Assembly: GCA_024639185.1 (NCBI GenBank) | Contig: JAHEIW010000003.1 | Location: 9,081 to 73,080, forward strand | Source: Deltaproteobacteria bacterium | GTDB taxonomy: Bacteria > Desulfobacterota > Desulfobacteria > Desulfobacterales > JAHEIW01 | Reading direction: 5' to 3' | DNA: 64,000 bases | Part shown: piece by piece, positions 3,345 through 61,594 of the stretch | Position numbering within the stretch: the stretch's first letter is position 1 | Layout: the number at the start of each line of letters is the position of its first letter | Position numbers and translations under genes: made by a program | The notes under the pieces: generated by a model | Database searches by the model: none | What the model saw: only the letters and a program-made list of their open reading frames with translations | Told to the model about the DNA's origin: nothing

Positions 3345-4757
3345 ATGCATAGACACCTTGACCGCATAAAAAATAATATGGGTTACAGCCTTTTTGCTTT
3401 ACTTTTTCTTCTTTTGGTATTTGGTTTGCCCCAACCGGGTTGGAGCCTGAAAACCGAACGCGAAAGCCCGATCGTACGGGCCGTGCGCAAAGTCAGCCCG
3501 GCTGTCGTTAATATAAGCTCCTCGTATGCCGTCCGCAAGCGCGCCAATCCCTTCTCCGGTTTCGGCATGGACCCGTTTTTCGAAGAATTTTTCAAAGACT
3601 TTTTTGACCCGCGTTTCGAAAGCCGCCAGGAAAGTGCCAGCCTGGGCTCCGGGGTGATCATCGACGGTAAGCGCGGCTTAATCCTCACCAACGCCCATGT
3701 GATTGAAAAGGCCAGCCAGATCAAAGTCGTGCTGGAAGATGAGCGGGAGTTCGATGCCAAAATCGTCGGCGCCGATCCGGATTCGGACCTGGCTGTGTTG
3801 CAGATTACGTCCCCAAACCGGTTGCCGGCAATCGACATGGGCAGCAGCGATGACTTGATGATCGGTGAAACGGTGATTGCCATCGGTAATCCTTTCGGCT
3901 TTTCGCATACGGTGACCACCGGCGTCATCAGCGCTGTCAATCGCAGCGTGCGCAGCGAAGAAATGGTTTTTCATGATTTTATCCAGATAGACGCCTCCAT
4001 CAATCCCGGCAACAGCGGCGGACCGCTGTTAAATATCAACGGTGATCTGATCGGCATCAATACGGCCATTTACGCCAAAGCCCAGGGCATCGGTTTTGCG
4101 ATTCCCATCAACAAGGCCAAAAAAATTATCGCCGACCTGATTCAATTCGGCGAGGTCATCCAGGCCTGGATCGGCATCAGCGTCCAGGAACTGGACCGCA
4201 AACTGGCCGGCTACCTGGATGTCCCCGGTAAGAAAGGCGTTGTGGTCAAAGCCGTGGAGTCCGGCAGCCCTGCCCGCAAAGCCGGCCTGCAGGAAGGCGA
4301 TATCATATTAGCGATCGGCTCAAAAAAAATAGCCTCACCGCGGGATTACTGGTCGGTCAAAAAAACATATGCCGCTGGAAATTCAGTTAAAGCCCGCATC
4401 TGGCGTGACAATCAAATCAAGACGATATCCATTAAATCCCGGGTTTTCCCCATGGAGCGCGCTGACGGCCTGGCCTTTCGCACTATGGGAATTCGAGTCA
4501 GCAATATCACAAAAGAAAACCGCAACTATTATCGTATCCGGACCCGTGAGGGCGTCGTGATTAGGGAAATTGCCCGCAACAGCCGCCTGGATCGAATCGG
4601 GGCGCGTCCGGGCGATGTCATCCGCCAGATTGACGACATGACGATTTCAAACACAGAAGATTTTAAAAAAGCCATTGTCAAATATCGTCAAAAACAATCG
4701 GTGGTCATCCTGCTGCAGAGGGGAGATCAGGGGTATTATATCACAGTTAAATTATAA
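3345..4757 (+). CDS. HtrA/DegP-type periplasmic serine protease with two PDZ domains
   Basis: A 470-residue trypsin-like protease and chaperone for damaged envelope proteins. The start at 3345 follows a GGAAGAAG ribosome site. A signal peptide covers roughly residues 10-35. The catalytic triad is visible: H118 in TNAHVIEKA, D148 in DPDSDLAVL and S224 in NPGNSGGPL. Two PDZ domains follow, around residues 260-360 (GVVVKAVESGSPARKAGLQEGD) and 385-470 (GVVIREIARNSRLDRIGARPGD). Length and order fit DegP/DegQ/MucD. A nested palindromic element begins at the base after the stop codon and is probably its transcript end. Confidence 0.95.
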   Translation: MHRHLDRIKNNMGYSLFALLFLLLVFGLPQPGWSLKTERESPIVRAVRKVSPAVVNISSSYAVRKRANPFSGFGMDPFFEEFFKDFFDPRFESRQESASLGSGVIIDGKRGLILTNAHVIEKASQIKVVLEDEREFDAKIVGADPDSDLAVLQITSPNRLPAIDMGSSDDLMIGETVIAIGNPFGFSHTVTTGVISAVNRSVRSEEMVFHDFIQIDASINPGNSGGPLLNINGDLIGINTAIYAKAQGIGFAIPINKAKKIIADLIQFGEVIQAWIGISVQELDRKLAGYLDVPGKKGVVVKAVESGSPARKAGLQEGDIILAIGSKKIASPRDYWSVKKTYAAGNSVKARIWRDNQIKTISIKSRVFPMERADGLAFRTMGIRVSNITKENRNYYRIRTREGVVIREIARNSRLDRIGARPGDVIRQIDDMTISNTEDFKKAIVKYRQKQSVVILLQRGDQGYYITVKL

Positions 4758-4902
4758 AGTTTGGATTCATAAATGGCCCTTTTTCCGATGAGCTGTGTTC
4801 TCCGCGAGTTTCAGCCCTCGACGTACTCTAAGTACGCCTCAAGCTGAAACCCTTGTGCGGCCTAGCTCATCAAAAAAATTGCCTATTTCTGATTCCAAAC
4901 TA
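4758..4902 (+). repeat. nested palindromic element, family A, copy 1 (3' of htrA)
   Basis: It begins immediately after the htrA stop. The outer arms are AGTTTGGATTCATAAATGGC (from 4758) and its imperfect complement ending at 4902. Inside, GATGAGC pairs with GCTCATC, then comes a conserved internal loop with TGTGTT on the 5' side, then GAGTTTCAGC against GCTGAAAC. The apex is built of GACGTACT and AGTACGCC. Copies 2-4 share this layout with different arm sequences. Confidence 0.75.
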
Positions 4903-7661: not shown

Positions 7662-7752
7662 CGATTCTCAAGATAATGCCAAACTCTGAGTAATCAGGGG
7701 ACGGAAAGCCACGGGTCCGCCGGAGGTGGACGGCCGGGTTACCTACCGAGGC
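7662..7752 (+). promoter_or_regulatory. GEMM-I riboswitch (cyclic di-GMP type)
   Basis: The core matches the GEMM-I consensus. AATGCCAAAC precedes a P1b hairpin CTCTGA-GTAA-TCAGGG, closed by a GNRA tetraloop. Then come GGGACGGAAAGCCACGGGTCC, a stem closed by GTCC/GGAC, and GGACGGCCGGGTTACC. The position corresponding to G20 of the Vc2 riboswitch appears to be G, which favours c-di-GMP over cGAMP; this alignment was made by eye. An intrinsic terminator follows directly and the next gene is a flagellar hook/cap-like protein. A change C to G is seen in the normally conserved GACGCAAAGCC. Confidence 0.88.
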
Positions 7753-7794
7753 TAAAAAGCTGGGTTGCCCGGAAATGGTGGCTCAGCTTTTTTC
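7752..7794 (+). terminator. riboswitch-associated intrinsic terminator
   Basis: AAAAAGCTGGGTTG pairs with TGGCTCAGCTTTTTT across a short loop, using several G-U pairs, and ends in a six-T run. It lies between the GEMM aptamer and the ATG at 7825, the usual expression platform for transcriptional control by this riboswitch class. Confidence 0.8.
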
Positions 7795-7824
7795 ATTGGG
7801 CCGCCTGGATGGAAAGGTGATCAA

Positions 7825-9936
7825 ATGGAATTGAACGGGGGGATTAATCCATACGAAAGTTTTCGTTTTGGTTTCGGGTCCATCGATACCATTCGTCAAC
7901 AGCTTACAGCCGCGACGGCGCGCCAGCAGGACAAGGCTCCGGTGGACCGCGATCGGTCGATCTTCACCCACCAGCGGGTCATGCGCATGCGCGAGGCGGT
8001 GCAGGCCATCAAACCCGAGATGCTCGAGCCCGGCCAGGTTCAGGTTGCCAGCCCGGCCAGCGCCACATCGGCTTCCAGCCTGGGCCTGAATACAACGGCG
8101 ACGTCCGCCACCCTGCAGTCCACCGAAGAGGTCAATGCCTCGGCAACTTCATTTTCGGCAAGTGAGTCGGGATGGGAGGGTAGTTCCACGGCGCAGGCTT
8201 CCATCAGCGGCGAGTATGACGGCTCCAACGGTACGGACACTCTCACATTTAAAGTCGACATGGGCGGCACCCACGGCTCAGACAAACTGAAGCTCACGGT
8301 CACGGATTCCAATAACAACACAATTGATGTCATCAGTGTCAATAAAAAAGACACCGTCGACAAGCAATACAGTCTTTCCAACGGGCTAGTATTCACTCTG
8401 GGCGCGGGTGAGCTTGTCCAGGATGATACGTTCACGCTAAATGTTGATGATACGGTACCGACTTCCTATTCGCCAGCCGCACCGCAATGGGCCGGTTCGA
8501 CCGCATCGGCCACGGTTGCAGGTGTCTATGACGGTTCCAATGGCACCGACATCCTCACATTTTCAGTCACAGCAGGGGGAACGCATGGTCAGGACAATCT
8601 CCAGATCAGCGTATTTGATTCCAGCAACAATCAGATTGACCAGATCAATATTAACAGCGCGGACAGCATTGATCAGCAATACGCTCTTTCCAATGGCCTG
8701 ACCTTAACCCTGGATGAAGGGAATCTTTTGGAGAGCTCCAGTTTTACAGTGGCGGTTTACGGCAATCAGAGCGGCACCGTAAACCCGGATAATCCCTTTA
8801 ACGGAACCGGCAATGATGACCCGAATCTGGAAAAGGGATTCAGTGTTAGCGACGGCTCGTTTGACATCAACGGGACCAGCATTGATGTCAACGCCAGCGA
8901 TACCCTCAATGACGTGCTCGATCGCATCAACCAGTCGGATGCCGGTGTGACCGCCACCTTCGATTCCGCCAGCGAAACGGTGCGGCTGACCCACAAAACG
9001 GCCGGTGCCGGGCAGGATATCGTGCTGGCCAATGATACGTCCGGGTTTGTGGCGGCCACCAAACTCGACGGGGCAACGGCAACTCCCGGCACGGACAAAG
9101 ATGCAGATTTGACCCTGGCCGAGGTGGGCGCCTTTTCAGCGGTGCAAAGCGGCAGCATCAGCATCAATGGCGTCGCCATCGATATTGACGTCGATACAGA
9201 CTCATTGAACGACATCATCGATCGCATCTCAACTTCTGAGGCCGGCGTACAGGCCAGTTTTGACAGCTCCTCCCAGCGGGTCTCGCTGCGTGCCGAAAGC
9301 ACCTCCAGCCAGATGGAGCTTGCCGGAGGCAGCACCAATTTTTTCATGGCTGTCGGCATATCGGAGGGGACTTATAATGCAGTCGATGATCTGATTGAGG
9401 CCTCGAGCGTCAATGTGAGCGATGTCACCGACCGCATCGTAGACGCCATTGTTGAAGAAAACAGCGAAAAACCCTGGGAGCAGGCGCCGACAGTCAAAGC
9501 AGCACCGATCTCGGCAATAAAAAGCCAGATGCTGACCTCCCTGGTGGGCCGCATCGCCGGCTCCATGAATACGCTGTTTGATGATTCGGCTTTTGAGGGC
9601 GCGCCGGGCAGTTTCCTCGAAGACGCCCGTAACGGCATCCGCAACGCCATATCATCCTGGTCGGGTTCTGAAGGGCCGCAATTCAACACCGACTTCGGTA
9701 TCCACTTTGACTTTGATAAAACCAAAGAGGGGGTATTTAATTTCGGCCGGACGGAACAGCAGCAGTTTAAGTCTGCGCTGGCTACCCCGGAAGGTGCGGC
9801 TGCGGTGAGCAACGCCCTTTTCGGGCAGGATTCCGGCGGGCTGTTCAACCGGCTGCATGCCTCCCTGACCGCATCCGCCGCGGGTCTGGAAAGTGAAAAC
9901 AACGCGACCGGTGTTTATCTGGATATATCCGCCTAA
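7825..9936 (+). CDS. FliD-like flagellar hook/cap protein with hook-IN motifs
   Basis: A protein of 703 residues. The ATG at 7825 follows GGAAAGGTG; the frame could extend to 7765, but that part overlaps the terminator and is rejected. Two tandem modules of about 100 residues (around 115-215 and 220-320) share YDGSNGTD, TAGGTHG and YxLSNGL. Two flagellin hook-IN motifs follow (GSFDINGTSIDVNASDTLND near 343 and GSISINGVAIDIDVDTDSLND near 443). There is no signal peptide, as expected for a flagellar export substrate. It lies behind a c-di-GMP riboswitch, which suits a motility or adhesion protein. No other flagellar gene is in the window. Confidence 0.75.
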   Translation: MELNGGINPYESFRFGFGSIDTIRQQLTAATARQQDKAPVDRDRSIFTHQRVMRMREAVQAIKPEMLEPGQVQVASPASATSASSLGLNTTATSATLQSTEEVNASATSFSASESGWEGSSTAQASISGEYDGSNGTDTLTFKVDMGGTHGSDKLKLTVTDSNNNTIDVISVNKKDTVDKQYSLSNGLVFTLGAGELVQDDTFTLNVDDTVPTSYSPAAPQWAGSTASATVAGVYDGSNGTDILTFSVTAGGTHGQDNLQISVFDSSNNQIDQININSADSIDQQYALSNGLTLTLDEGNLLESSSFTVAVYGNQSGTVNPDNPFNGTGNDDPNLEKGFSVSDGSFDINGTSIDVNASDTLNDVLDRINQSDAGVTATFDSASETVRLTHKTAGAGQDIVLANDTSGFVAATKLDGATATPGTDKDADLTLAEVGAFSAVQSGSISINGVAIDIDVDTDSLNDIIDRISTSEAGVQASFDSSSQRVSLRAESTSSQMELAGGSTNFFMAVGISEGTYNAVDDLIEASSVNVSDVTDRIVDAIVEENSEKPWEQAPTVKAAPISAIKSQMLTSLVGRIAGSMNTLFDDSAFEGAPGSFLEDARNGIRNAISSWSGSEGPQFNTDFGIHFDFDKTKEGVFNFGRTEQQQFKSALATPEGAAAVSNALFGQDSGGLFNRLHASLTASAAGLESENNATGVYLDISA

Positions 9937-15541: not shown

Positions 15542-16039
15542 ATGCCCAACGCAATGCGCGGAAAATTGATTCTAAAAGCAGTACCGGCCGGAGACGCTGA
15601 AGAAAAAGTCGTAATGATGCTGCTTAAATTCGCAAAAACAGCTTCCGCAATCGAGCTAACCAAAAAGGTCCGAGATACGCCGTATGTGCTCAGCGGTGAT
15701 ATTGAAGCCGAAAAAGCGCTGATGTTCATCGAGGCGTTTCAAAAATGCGGGGCAACGGCAGTGTTTATCCCCCATGTAACCGAAGATGCCCCTGCCGAAC
15801 AGTTAGCTCCGGTCCAGAGGCCGCAGGTATTTTCTTTTGAATCAGATGCATCTTTTATGGATGAAGAAACCCCGCCGCCCATCCATGTAAAACCCCCCAA
15901 AAACGGCGTCCGTCGCTTAACCATGACACTGGTCATCATCTTATTCGTTTTATCCCTTGGTTTTCTCACATGGCAGCTCTGGCCGATTATCGGCGACAAG
16001 GTTCAGGAGATTATCAACTTCCTCAAAAACAACATCTAA
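15542..16039 (+). CDS. small protein with L7/L12-C-terminal-like domain and membrane anchor
   Basis: 165 residues from the ATG at 15542, nine bases after AGGAAAGG; a TTG at 15536 is less well spaced. Residues 5-75 form an alpha/beta unit (KLILKAVPAGDAEEKVVMML, then YVLSGDIEAEKALMFIEAFQKCGATAVFI) resembling the L7/L12 C-terminal domain used as a sensor module. A Pro-rich linker and one membrane segment (about 128-150, LVIILFVLSLGFLTWQLW) follow. A similar N-terminal module starts the membrane protein at 55890-57188. Function unknown. A family A palindrome starts at its stop codon. Confidence 0.75.
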   Translation: MPNAMRGKLILKAVPAGDAEEKVVMMLLKFAKTASAIELTKKVRDTPYVLSGDIEAEKALMFIEAFQKCGATAVFIPHVTEDAPAEQLAPVQRPQVFSFESDASFMDEETPPPIHVKPPKNGVRRLTMTLVIILFVLSLGFLTWQLWPIIGDKVQEIINFLKNNI

Positions 16040-16181
16040 AACCTGTCTCAAAAATGCGTCAAAGTGCTCAGGGCTGTGTTATCCCGTGAATTGAAATACT
16101 CACGTACTCCGTGTACGCTCTGTTTTCAATTCACGGGACGCCTTGCCCTGAACCCTAATCCACTATTTTTGAGACAGGTTT
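16039..16181 (+). repeat. nested palindromic element, family A, copy 2
   Basis: The outer arms AAACCTGTCTCAAAAAT (16039-16055) and the exact complement (16165-16181) start at the last base of the preceding stop codon. The middle helix is CAGGGC/GCCCTG. The conserved internal loop is TGTGTT opposite CGCCTT. The inner helix is about 15 bp (ATCCCGTGAATTGAAA against TTTTCAATTCACGGGA). The apex contains CACGTACT and GTGTACGC. Confidence 0.85.
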
Positions 16182-38189: not shown

Positions 38190-38243
38190 TAACGGGTTCA
38201 AAGGTTCAGGGTACAGGGTTTAGGGTTTAGGGTTTAGGGTTTT
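38190..38243. repeat. GGGTTTA tandem repeat in phrase repeat
   Basis: GGGTTCAAAGGTTCAGGGTACA leads into GGGTTTA at 38216, 38223 and 38230 and GGGTTTT at 38237. The unit equals the plant telomere repeat but here is clearly part of an intergenic phrase repeat. Confidence 0.8.
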
Positions 38244-38323: not shown

Positions 38324-38465
38324 AAATTATCTCAAAAATAGTAGATCACGTCCAAGGGCAAGGCGAAAACCGATTCAAAAGTGGAGTATACACGACAGTA
38401 TTCGAGCATTTTGAATCGGTTTTTAACACAGCCATTGGGCGTAAGATGCATTTTTGAGATAATTT
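38324..38465 (-). repeat. nested palindromic element, family A, copy 3 (3' of gyrB)
   Basis: The outer arms AAATTATCTCAAAAAT (38324-38339 and complement 38450-38465) are perfect and end exactly at the gyrB stop. Read in the gyrB direction: a helix CCAATGGC against GCCCTTGG, the conserved internal loop TGTGTT opposite CGCCTT, then an inner helix of about 15 bp (AAAACCGATTCAAAA against TTTTGAATCGGTTTT). The apex contains CTCGAATACTGTCGTGTATACTCC in part. Confidence 0.88.
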
Positions 38466-42034
<3,569 letters not shown>

Positions 42035-60914: not shown

Positions 60915-60944
60915 CTGCACCTCTTTGTGTTGAAGTAAAAAATG

Positions 60945-61171
60945 GCTTTAAAACGGTCTATTATGGTCGATGGCACGGCGCAAATCGATTAAAAAGTGGA
61001 GCGTACATATCGTGGCTTGAAGCCACTCCCACATCTATTCGTAAACAGGGTTGGTTATCATGTTCGTATCCATAAAAATTTGTGGGAGCGGCATCTTGCC
61101 GCGATATTCGAGTATTTTAAACCAGCTCGGAACACAGCCATCAGCCATATGAGGCGGTCTCAAAGCTATTT
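60945..61171 (-). repeat. family A palindrome, copy 4, with a REP-like element inserted
   Basis: Read in the direction of the gene at 61172-61594, whose stop it abuts: GATGGC pairs with GCCATC, with the conserved loop TGTGTT opposite CGCCGT, then a weaker inner stem (GGTTTAAAATACTCGA against AAAGTGG...ATCGAT). In place of the usual apex lies a second palindrome, ATCGTGGCTTGAAGCC at 61008 and GGCATCTTGCCGCGAT at 61093-61108, with CACTCCCACA and TGTGGGAGC between. The latter resembles common bacterial REP sequences. Confidence 0.75.
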
Positions 61172-61594
61172 CTATTTCCAGCCAATGACCTGATACCCTT
61201 TATCCCGCAAACACTGCTCAACGAAGCGGCGCTCAATTTCATCCGGGTCGCCTGATTTCCAGGCACCCCGCATCAATCCGCCTGCACCGCCGCCGGCGGC
61301 ACCGGCTGCCAAACCGCGGCCTGTGCGGCCCCTGACGGCGCCGATCGCTCCGCCGATCGCTGCTCCTGTGGCAGCCCCCTTGCCTGTTGATACGGCCACA
61401 TTCTTGCCGGCATCGGTTTCATGGCCATGATCGGCCGCCAGCTGAATACAGTCATCAATATCGGCGATGGCTACAGATTCGCCTGCCGACTTGTAAGTGT
61501 AATTTGGATAAAGAACCGGGCGTTTTTTTGAACAGGCGGCCATCACAATGATGATGGTGAACAGGCAAACGGTCATTGTCAAATATTTTTTCAT
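61172..61594 (-). CDS. glycine-zipper lipoprotein
   Basis: 140 residues from the ATG at 61594; the longer frame lacks a better site. Lipobox MAAC after a clear signal (TMTVCLFTIIIVMAACSKK). DIDDCIQLAADHG precedes a glycine-zipper stretch GAATGAAIGGAIGAVRGRTGRGLAAGAAGGGAGGLMRG, able to insert in or associate with the membrane. The C-terminus ERRFVEQCLRDKGYQVIGWK is typical of this family of outer-membrane lipoproteins (YMGG-like). Function unknown. Confidence 0.85.
   Translation of the reverse strand: MKKYLTMTVCLFTIIIVMAACSKKRPVLYPNYTYKSAGESVAIADIDDCIQLAADHGHETDAGKNVAVSTGKGAATGAAIGGAIGAVRGRTGRGLAAGAAGGGAGGLMRGAWKSGDPDEIERRFVEQCLRDKGYQVIGWK

What the first reader, a model, noticed from the sequence alone, without database searches (positions are those of the whole stretch)
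38324..38465. Family of nested palindromes with a conserved asymmetric internal loop and covarying helices, always at stop codons
Seen directly: four elements (4758-4902, 16039-16181, 38324-38465, 60945-61171) share one design. From the stop codon of a gene they read outer arm, middle helix, TGTGTT, inner helix, apex with ACGTACT/AGTACGC-like words, inner helix, CGCCTT-like strand, middle helix, outer arm. The loop strands are nearly constant, while the middle helix is GATGAGC/GCTCATC, CAGGGC/GCCCTG, CCAATGGC/GCCCTTGG and GATGGC/GCCATC: different sequence, still paired. All four abut the stop codon and keep one orientation relative to the gene, on both strands. Covariation plus constant loop suggests selection on a folded RNA or DNA: a terminator or 3'-end element, a protein-bound RNA motif, or a MITE-like element that targets gene ends. 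I know no named family with this layout.
Basis: partly seen in the sequence, partly recalled or inferred. Interest (0 to 1): 0.8.

Follow-up and report, generated by a model that had tools for sequence, protein, structure and literature searches.

The report
Folding repeat seated on stop codons
About a hundred copies of a 145-base repeat lie scattered through this bacterial genome, and over half of the copies placed start at a gene's stop codon; their paired stretches change together while their loop words stay nearly constant in the sampled genomes of the phylum, and the repeat is likely a mobile hairpin that would travel as one folded strand and land on stop codons without breaking the gene.

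Summary
The four elements belong to one family. The genome has at least 103 matches; I placed 91. In 54 of 91 the first bases overlap the stop codon of the upstream gene, while 4.1% of non-coding TA sites are stop codons. Copies occur in 41 of 58 genomes (own included) and in 67 of 297 genomes of the phylum. No Rfam family matched. Covariation is strong: 980 two-sided changed cells against 278 shuffled.

Two points change the reading. First, the strand that folds better is the complement of the one described: G·U/A·C is 140/31 there and 48/53 on the gene-sense strand; a riboswitch control gives 59/7 and 34/35. Second, close copies at the same stop codon in sister species differ mostly on one side of a pair (59 one-sided, 13 two-sided). 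So the fold is likely selected while copies spread rather than at each gene. I read it as a TA-ended, MITE-like hairpin recognised by shape, with an unknown mobility protein. A U-tract is not clearly enriched, and Y1 transposases, IS630, integron integrases and reverse transcriptases are each missing from some element-rich genomes.

The parts
38324..38468 (+). Element 1, written on the strand that folds better (complement of the gyrB-like gene's sense strand). Its last three bases are the reverse complement of that gene's stop codon.
   Evidence: R1 bits 158.9; fold -61.3 kcal/mol, z -11.6; gene 38466-40919 (-) hits DNA_gyraseB, PF00204
38324..38339 (+). Outer arm, 5' strand of the folding strand; differs between copies but stays paired
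   Evidence: fold; pairs 2-14 with 139-151 of A13
38447..38465 (+). Outer arm, 3' strand of the folding strand, next to the gyrB stop codon
   Evidence: fold
38359..38364 (+). Loop word CAAGGC (gene-sense GCCTTG); CCTTG is nearly invariant
   Evidence: gene-sense CCTTG columns 39-40 of 40 each; pair 39-112 G-C in 41 of 41
38425..38431 (+). Loop word AACACAG (gene-sense CTGTGTT)
   Evidence: gene-sense C 39, T 33, G 39, C 29, G 40, T 40, T 33 of 40 (the fourth is C in most genomes, T here)
38466..38468 (-). TAA stop codon of the gyrB-like gene, which is also the element's terminal TAR
16037..16180 (-). Element 2, folding strand; the gene on + ends with TAA at 16037-16039
   Evidence: R1 bits 141.5; fold -77.9, z -12.1
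4756..4900 (-). Element 3 (a second sequence type), folding strand; after a trypsin/PDZ protease gene that ends at 4757
   Evidence: R1 bits 107.6; fold -73.9, z -12.3; Pfam hits
60940..61174 (+). Element 4, folding strand; 97 nt at the apex instead of 6. The gene on - ends with TAG at 61174-61172
   Evidence: R1 bits 84.0, 97 nt in place of 6 at the apex
61007..61103 (.). The 97-nt apex insert, with an inverted pair of REP-like words (GTGGGAGTGGC / GTGGGAGCGGC)
   Evidence: sequence and alignment; the REP label is recalled, not tested

Best explanation
The four window elements belong to a dispersed family of 145-base hairpins that is likely a non-autonomous, MITE-like mobile element, predicted to move as one folded single strand and to insert at the TA of stop codons. 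Shown: the family, its covariation, the strand on which the fold is better, the nearly constant loop words, the stop-codon placement in this genome and in nearby genera, and presence or absence between sister species. Inferred: (1) a trans-acting protein recognises the shape and the loop words (gene-sense CTGYGTT / CGCCTTG), so helices may change if both sides change. (2) Many copies end in TA with A or G inside, so a copy placed in TAA or TAG leaves a stop codon and does no harm. (3) The fold is maintained while copies spread; a seated copy then mostly decays. The protein, and whether the strand is single-stranded DNA or RNA, are unknown; I lean to DNA because no conserved promoter-like position lies upstream of the folding strand.
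For: Dispersed, many copies: 103 matches in G000, with 150 of 1379 candidates scored, so a lower bound. Covariation: 42 of 46 pairs with two-sided changes, 980 cells against 277.6 shuffled, 0 of 500 shuffles (alignment fitted to the model); 31 of 35 pairs in a MAFFT alignment not fitted to a structure, 40 copies from 39 genomes. Strand: complement E -29.2 and G·U/A·C 140/31; gene-sense E -17.5 and 48/53; riboswitch control 59/7 on its true strand and 34/35 on the reverse. The preference is seen in copies antisense (66/12, 20 copies) and sense (67/17, 17 copies) to neighbours; 4 unassigned copies give 10/6. Stop codons: 54 of 91, of which TAA 39, TAG 12, TGA 3; TGA is 99 of 340 genes of the window and the 400 kb sample. 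In best copies of G001, G004 and G005, 10 of 20. Turnover: a copy at the same stop in 13 of 28 (G002), 5 of 29 (G001) and 2 of 15 (G003) best-hit gene ends; at one gene the relative lacks the 145 nt but keeps similar spacing to a conserved downstream stretch (L093/L149). Decay in place: in 12 close ortholog pairs 59 one-sided against 13 two-sided changes outside the GTG helix (67 and 13 with it); in 6 distant pairs 27 against 75 (33 and 75 with it). No flank position beyond +6 exceeds 0.23 bits.
Against: No mobility protein found: Y1_Tnp is absent from G013 (52 copies) and G054 (48); IS630 DDE_3 from G000, G001, G002 and G004; RVT_1 from G002, G013 and G037; integron integrase over its cut-off from G001, G003 and G004. 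No mobility event was observed. TA at the paired 3' position is seen in 16 of 56 own copies, and 14 of 56 have it one base off, so a target duplication is not proven. Three columns with a G·U consensus give much of the strand signal; without them it is 54/35 in the 41-row alignment, and 133/47 summed over 82 copies of G000. In place the bias points the same way but weakly (complement G·U 23, A·C 12, close pairs), so selection at the gene is not excluded. One conserved small helix (GTG/CGC) has a U·G on the gene-sense strand in 56 of 91 copies. At one gene the arm reaches into the coding sequence and a synonymous change is matched in the other arm (L161/L172).
Confidence: 0.47

Rival explanations
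1. A cis-acting 3'-end element of the host gene: a hairpin right after the stop codon that ends transcription, protects the mRNA or stalls the terminating ribosome.
For: 54 of 91 copies start in the stop codon, on the gene's strand. PMC12306157 cites a study in which E. coli REPs within 15 nt of a stop codon stall ribosomes (passages read). The gene-sense strand also folds strongly. T is 0.41-0.47 at +4 to +11 after the element against 0.22-0.31 after ordinary stops, and runs of six T are commoner (6 of 91 against 5 of 336). Some arms change on both sides between orthologs (L037/L174, L018/L140).
Against: No G·U preference on the gene-sense strand (48/53; control 59/7). TTTTT is not clearly enriched (9 of 91 against 25 of 336). 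52 of 72 best-hit gene ends in sister species have no model hit at the same stop. Close orthologs are mostly uncompensated.
Confidence: 0.18
2. An RNA transcribed from the complementary strand (antisense to the gene end), for instance a protein-binding or regulatory RNA present in many copies.
For: The strand that folds better is the complement, with a riboswitch-like G·U excess and consensus G·U pairs.
Against: No Rfam family over its gathering score. No positional conservation in the flank that would hold its promoter. The strand preference does not depend on neighbouring gene direction.
Confidence: 0.15
3. A neutral DNA palindrome kept paired by copying one arm onto the other during replication (quasi-palindrome correction), with no selected fold.
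For: Inner helix replaced as a block with outer arms kept (L103/L156); an arm that reaches into a coding end is matched by its partner (L161/L172).
Against: Copying would erase unpaired loops, yet ten loop-word columns average 0.95 majority frequency against 0.58 for outer and inner helix columns. It predicts similar G·U and A·C on both strands, which is not seen.
Confidence: 0.12
4. Relics of integron-type attC sites, which also follow genes and recombine through the folded bottom strand (recalled).
For: Same layout: gene, stop codon, hairpin, with the folded strand antisense to the gene.
Against: No attC R-box words seen at the ends (recalled consensus, by eye); dispersed copies; integrase not over the cut-off in G001, G003 and G004, which have 54, 45 and 31 matches.
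Confidence: 0.04

Closest known systems
TA-ended bacterial MITEs with long stem-loops (ERIC/IRU, Correia/NEMIS, RUP; table in PMC2229807, passages read)
   Same: 100-200 bp, paired ends, many dispersed copies, TA at the termini in part of the copies
   Different: Here end sequences vary widely but stay paired, loop words are nearly constant across sampled genomes of a phylum, one strand folds better, over half of the placed copies in this genome sit at a stop codon, and no IS630 transposase domain was found in this genome
GTAG/CGTC-tagged REPs and BIMEs with RAYT Y1 transposases (PMC3733652, passages and abstract start seen; the RAYT link is recalled)
   Same: Palindromes, mostly downstream of genes; the paper says GTAG REP termini often provide the TAG stop codon
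   Different: REPs are described as 20-40 bp; this element is 145 nt with several internal loops, and Y1_Tnp is absent from two element-rich genomes
Integron attC sites (recalled; titles and abstract starts seen)
   Same: Follow the stop codon; the folded strand is the complement of the gene's sense strand; arms vary while pairing is kept
   Different: No R-box words seen, no arrays seen, no match with integrase presence

Membership tests
Bacterial MITE (TA-ended, non-autonomous) | Short, many dispersed copies with inverted-repeat ends | tested here: met
   145 nt; 103 matches in G000; 69 of 91 own copies pair at least 8 of 10 bases in the outer arm
Bacterial MITE (TA-ended, non-autonomous) | TA at both termini / target duplication | tested here: inconclusive
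   Paired 3' TA in 16 of 56 own, 13 of 26 diverse and 7 of 13 G001/G004/G005 copies with a 5' TA; 14 of 56 own one base off (L044 and L046 are in two of the sets)
Bacterial MITE (TA-ended, non-autonomous) | Filled and empty sites between relatives | tested here: inconclusive
   20 of 72 best-hit gene ends filled; one pair (L093/L149) with similar spacing, others too diverged or with partial remains
Bacterial MITE (TA-ended, non-autonomous) | Resident transposase able to move it | tested here: inconclusive
   IS630 DDE_3 has 0 matches in G000, G001, G002 and G004, so that partner is not met; other DDE families were not tested
REP/BIME with RAYT | Y1 transposase in the same genome | tested here: not met
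   0 Y1_Tnp in G013 and G054, which have 52 and 48 matches
REP/BIME with RAYT | 20-40 nt unit with GTAG or CGTC foot | tested here: not met
   145-nt unit; ends mostly TAR
Integron attC | Integron integrase in element-rich genomes | tested here: not met
   33 of 58 genomes over the cut-off, not G001, G003 or G004
Integron attC | R'/R'' box words at the ends | tested here: inconclusive
   Not seen by eye in printed ends; no attC profile was run
Intrinsic terminator | U-tract after the hairpin | tested here: inconclusive
   TTTTT within 22 nt: 9 of 91 against 25 of 336 genes; T-run of six: 6 of 91 against 5 of 336; a broad T excess at +4 to +11
Known Rfam RNA family | Match at the gathering score | tested here: not met
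   Window: only c-di-GMP-I at 7668-7746; two single copies searched loosely gave only matches far below gathering scores

The most novel reading that the evidence does not exclude
A phylum-wide mobile element with no sequence-defined ends: a 145-base hairpin recognised by shape on one strand only, driven by an enzyme outside the four mobility families tested, that uses stop codons as harmless landing sites by rebuilding the stop with its own terminal TAR.
Probability: 0.21. Interest if true: 0.9.

Novelty: new variant of a known kind. Interest (0 to 1): 0.73.

Why it matters
A structured repeat with strong covariation and a riboswitch-like strand preference, without a match in the Rfam searches made here, occurs in 67 of 297 sampled genomes of the phylum. 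If it moves by shape, it would be another case beside integron attC sites (recalled) where fold rather than sequence marks a mobile end, with the stop codon as a safe harbour. It also warns that covariation plus position after genes does not prove a host 3'-end RNA: strand bias and ortholog comparison point elsewhere. The family gives a ready model (R1) and clear tests.

Tried and rejected
Tested and not supported: terminator tail (mixed); gene-sense RNA; REP/RAYT partner; IS630 partner; reverse transcriptase partner; integron integrase partner. An early idea that outer arms are copied from the target at insertion was dropped: arms of different copies share a consensus. A first mismatch count (A·C far above G·U) mixed in conserved loop positions and was replaced by stricter counts and then by the two-strand comparison with a control. 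A helix count on the fitted alignment gave G·U 175 and A·C 158 with the small GTG helix included, which hid the bias. In a draft I wrote that close orthologs show no strand bias (A·C 23, G·U 19); the recount without the GTG helix gives 23 and 12, so I mended it and lowered the best reading from 0.5 to 0.47 and the novel case from 0.22 to 0.21. A first pattern with a wrong gap gave no match. The first 12-row alignment A2 had two rows on the wrong strand and was redone. No blastn match in plasmids (L253 copy) or phages (L042 copy). Paper searches listed no paper that I could tie to this element; only listings were read there, and passages of three papers.

Rows dropped: of 103 matches, 11 of the weakest were not fetched and 1 was an opposite-strand duplicate; of 109 rows, 18 overlapping rows were dropped to give 91. 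The 400 kb sample came from five long contigs already known to carry copies, so its 8 places are not an unbiased density; two of the 8 are not in the list. The samples from other genomes are their best-scoring copies. Copy counts are capped at 54 and 10 scored candidates per genome. Ortholog counts used 25 non-independent comparisons; searches used 18. One search used 82 of 91 own copies.

Full report
What is there. The four elements were read from the sequence. A corrected pattern search gave 11 copies in the genome. With one window copy added they made a covariance model, R1, of 145 positions and 46 pairs. R1 finds four matches in the window and 103 in the whole 5.09 Mb genome, where 150 of 1379 candidates were scored. 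A 400 kb sample of five long contigs, all already known to carry a copy, has 8 distinct places, two of them new. So about 100 copies, possibly more, fits. Element 4 was not in the model and still scores 84 bits; its apex holds 97 nt instead of 6, with two REP-like inverted words.

Context. I fetched 91 distinct copies with flanks and called genes by codon use. 71 of 91 follow a gene on the same strand, 15 the opposite, and 5 have no called upstream gene. In 54 the element starts 1 to 4 bases before the end of the stop codon; in 7 the stop lies a little further inside the arm. Of the 54 stops, 39 are TAA, 12 TAG and 3 TGA; among 340 genes of the window and the 400 kb sample TGA is 99. Only 233 of 5616 non-coding TA sites are stop codons. 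Neighbour direction is not special: after 63 stop-type copies the next gene is same-strand 42, convergent 19, none 2; in the background 263 and 70. In samples of best copies the start abuts a stop in 10 of 31 (29 genomes), 10 of 20 (G001, G004, G005; two copies shared with the first set) and 2 of 22 (nine other genomes of the phylum).

Fold and covariation. On 101 distinct own rows, 89.3% of cells pair against 67.1% shuffled, 42 of 46 pairs have two-sided changes, and slid controls drop to 27-45% paired (this alignment is fitted to the model). On 40 copies from 39 genomes aligned without structure, RNAalifold predicts 35 pairs, 31 with two-sided changes. In that alignment the loop words stay: majority frequency averages 0.95 in ten word columns and 0.58 in outer and inner helix columns.

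Which strand folds. The same script (MAFFT, RNAalifold) was run on both strands. Elements, 40 rows: gene-sense E -17.5, G·U 48, A·C 53; complement E -29.2, G·U 140, A·C 31. A known RNA from related genomes, the c-di-GMP-I riboswitch (30 loci): true strand G·U 59, A·C 7; reverse 34 and 35. The top 60 rows of the own set give 91/70 and 288/56. On the complement with 41 rows the consensus energy is -42.25, and three columns have a G·U consensus. The bias is similar for copies whose complement is antisense (66/12) or sense (67/17) to neighbouring genes, with 10/6 in four unassigned copies, so transcription of neighbours does not explain it. Without the three columns it weakens to 54/35 there, and in G000 to 98/36, 8/3 and 27/8 for three context groups. 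Stricter local counts in own copies agree: gene-sense A·C to G·U 23:8, 32:3 and 27:4 in outer, middle and inner helices; in the diverse set they are 4:8, 9:2 and 7:2, and in the distant set 5:2, 2:3 and 2:1, so the signal is uneven. One conserved pair runs against it: the small GTG/CGC helix has a gene-sense U·G in 56 of 91 copies.

In place or in flight. Thirty gene ends that carry a copy were followed into three sister species by best protein hit; a second own gene end found in the same loci makes 31. A copy stands at the same stop in 13 of 28, 5 of 29 and 2 of 15 comparisons. Among 12 close pairs, outside the GTG helix, changes are one-sided 59 times (gene-sense A·C 23, G·U 12, other 24) and two-sided 13 times. 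Among 6 distant pairs two-sided changes dominate, 75 to 27; these may be replaced or converted copies rather than one copy changing. This is the main reason I place selection on the fold in the spread of copies more than at the gene, but the weak in-place bias (23 to 12) leaves room for both. Counter-examples exist: L037/L174 and L018/L140 have compensated outer-arm changes, and at L161/L172 a synonymous coding change is matched in the other arm. Partial remains with only the first arm occur (L025 in G003, L078 and L019 in G002).

Spread and partners. Partners tested on the same 58: Y1_Tnp, IS630 DDE_3, integron integrase and RVT_1. Each is missing from at least two element-rich genomes. One sister genome (G001) has two contigs of the same lengths as public records of an uncultured Desulfobacterales bacterium, isolate FCS_Desulfobacterota_01.

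Known things. No Rfam match to the elements. Bacterial MITEs of similar size with TA ends are tabulated in PMC2229807 (passages). PMC3733652 says REP termini often give the TAG stop codon to flanking genes (passages). PMC12306157 cites a study in which REPs within 15 nt of a stop stall ribosomes (passages). So the elements work like shape-recognised hairpin repeats. Membership in MITEs is partly met, in REPs and attC sites not met, in terminators undecided.

Limits. Gene calls come from a simple codon-use script trained on the window. Samples from other genomes are best hits. RNAalifold favours G·U, which the control addresses. Related copies are not independent, so raw counts overstate significance. 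No expression or mobility data are at hand.

Noticed in passing
window 7668-7746 (+): c-di-GMP-I riboswitch (Rfam RF01051, 64.8 bits) upstream of the ORF 7765-9936; seven matches in the whole genome at E up to 0.001.
   Followed up: partly
window 38206-38243: Tandem run of GGGTTTA-like units between the gyrB element and the next gene; GGTTCAG-like runs also follow gyrB in a sister species.
   Followed up: no
window 61007-61103: Inverted pair of GTGGGAG(C/T)GGC words set into the apex of element 4, REP/BIME-like by recall; GTCCGCC..GGCGGAC-type palindromes sit at the apex in relatives (L182, L175, L132).
   Followed up: partly
L175, L104, L164, L160, L163 near the element's 3' side: A second dispersed stretch resembling 'TTGAACACCTTAATGT...AAGACGTGAAATCCCGC' recurs in part or whole beside or inside elements in several genomes.
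   Followed up: no
G053 (4.2 Mb relative): 43 reverse-transcriptase matches, many identical in score, and a cluster of Y1_Tnp matches near 3.85-3.89 Mb.
   Followed up: no
58 genomes of the order: 33 of 58 genomes have an integron integrase over the curated cut-off.
   Followed up: no
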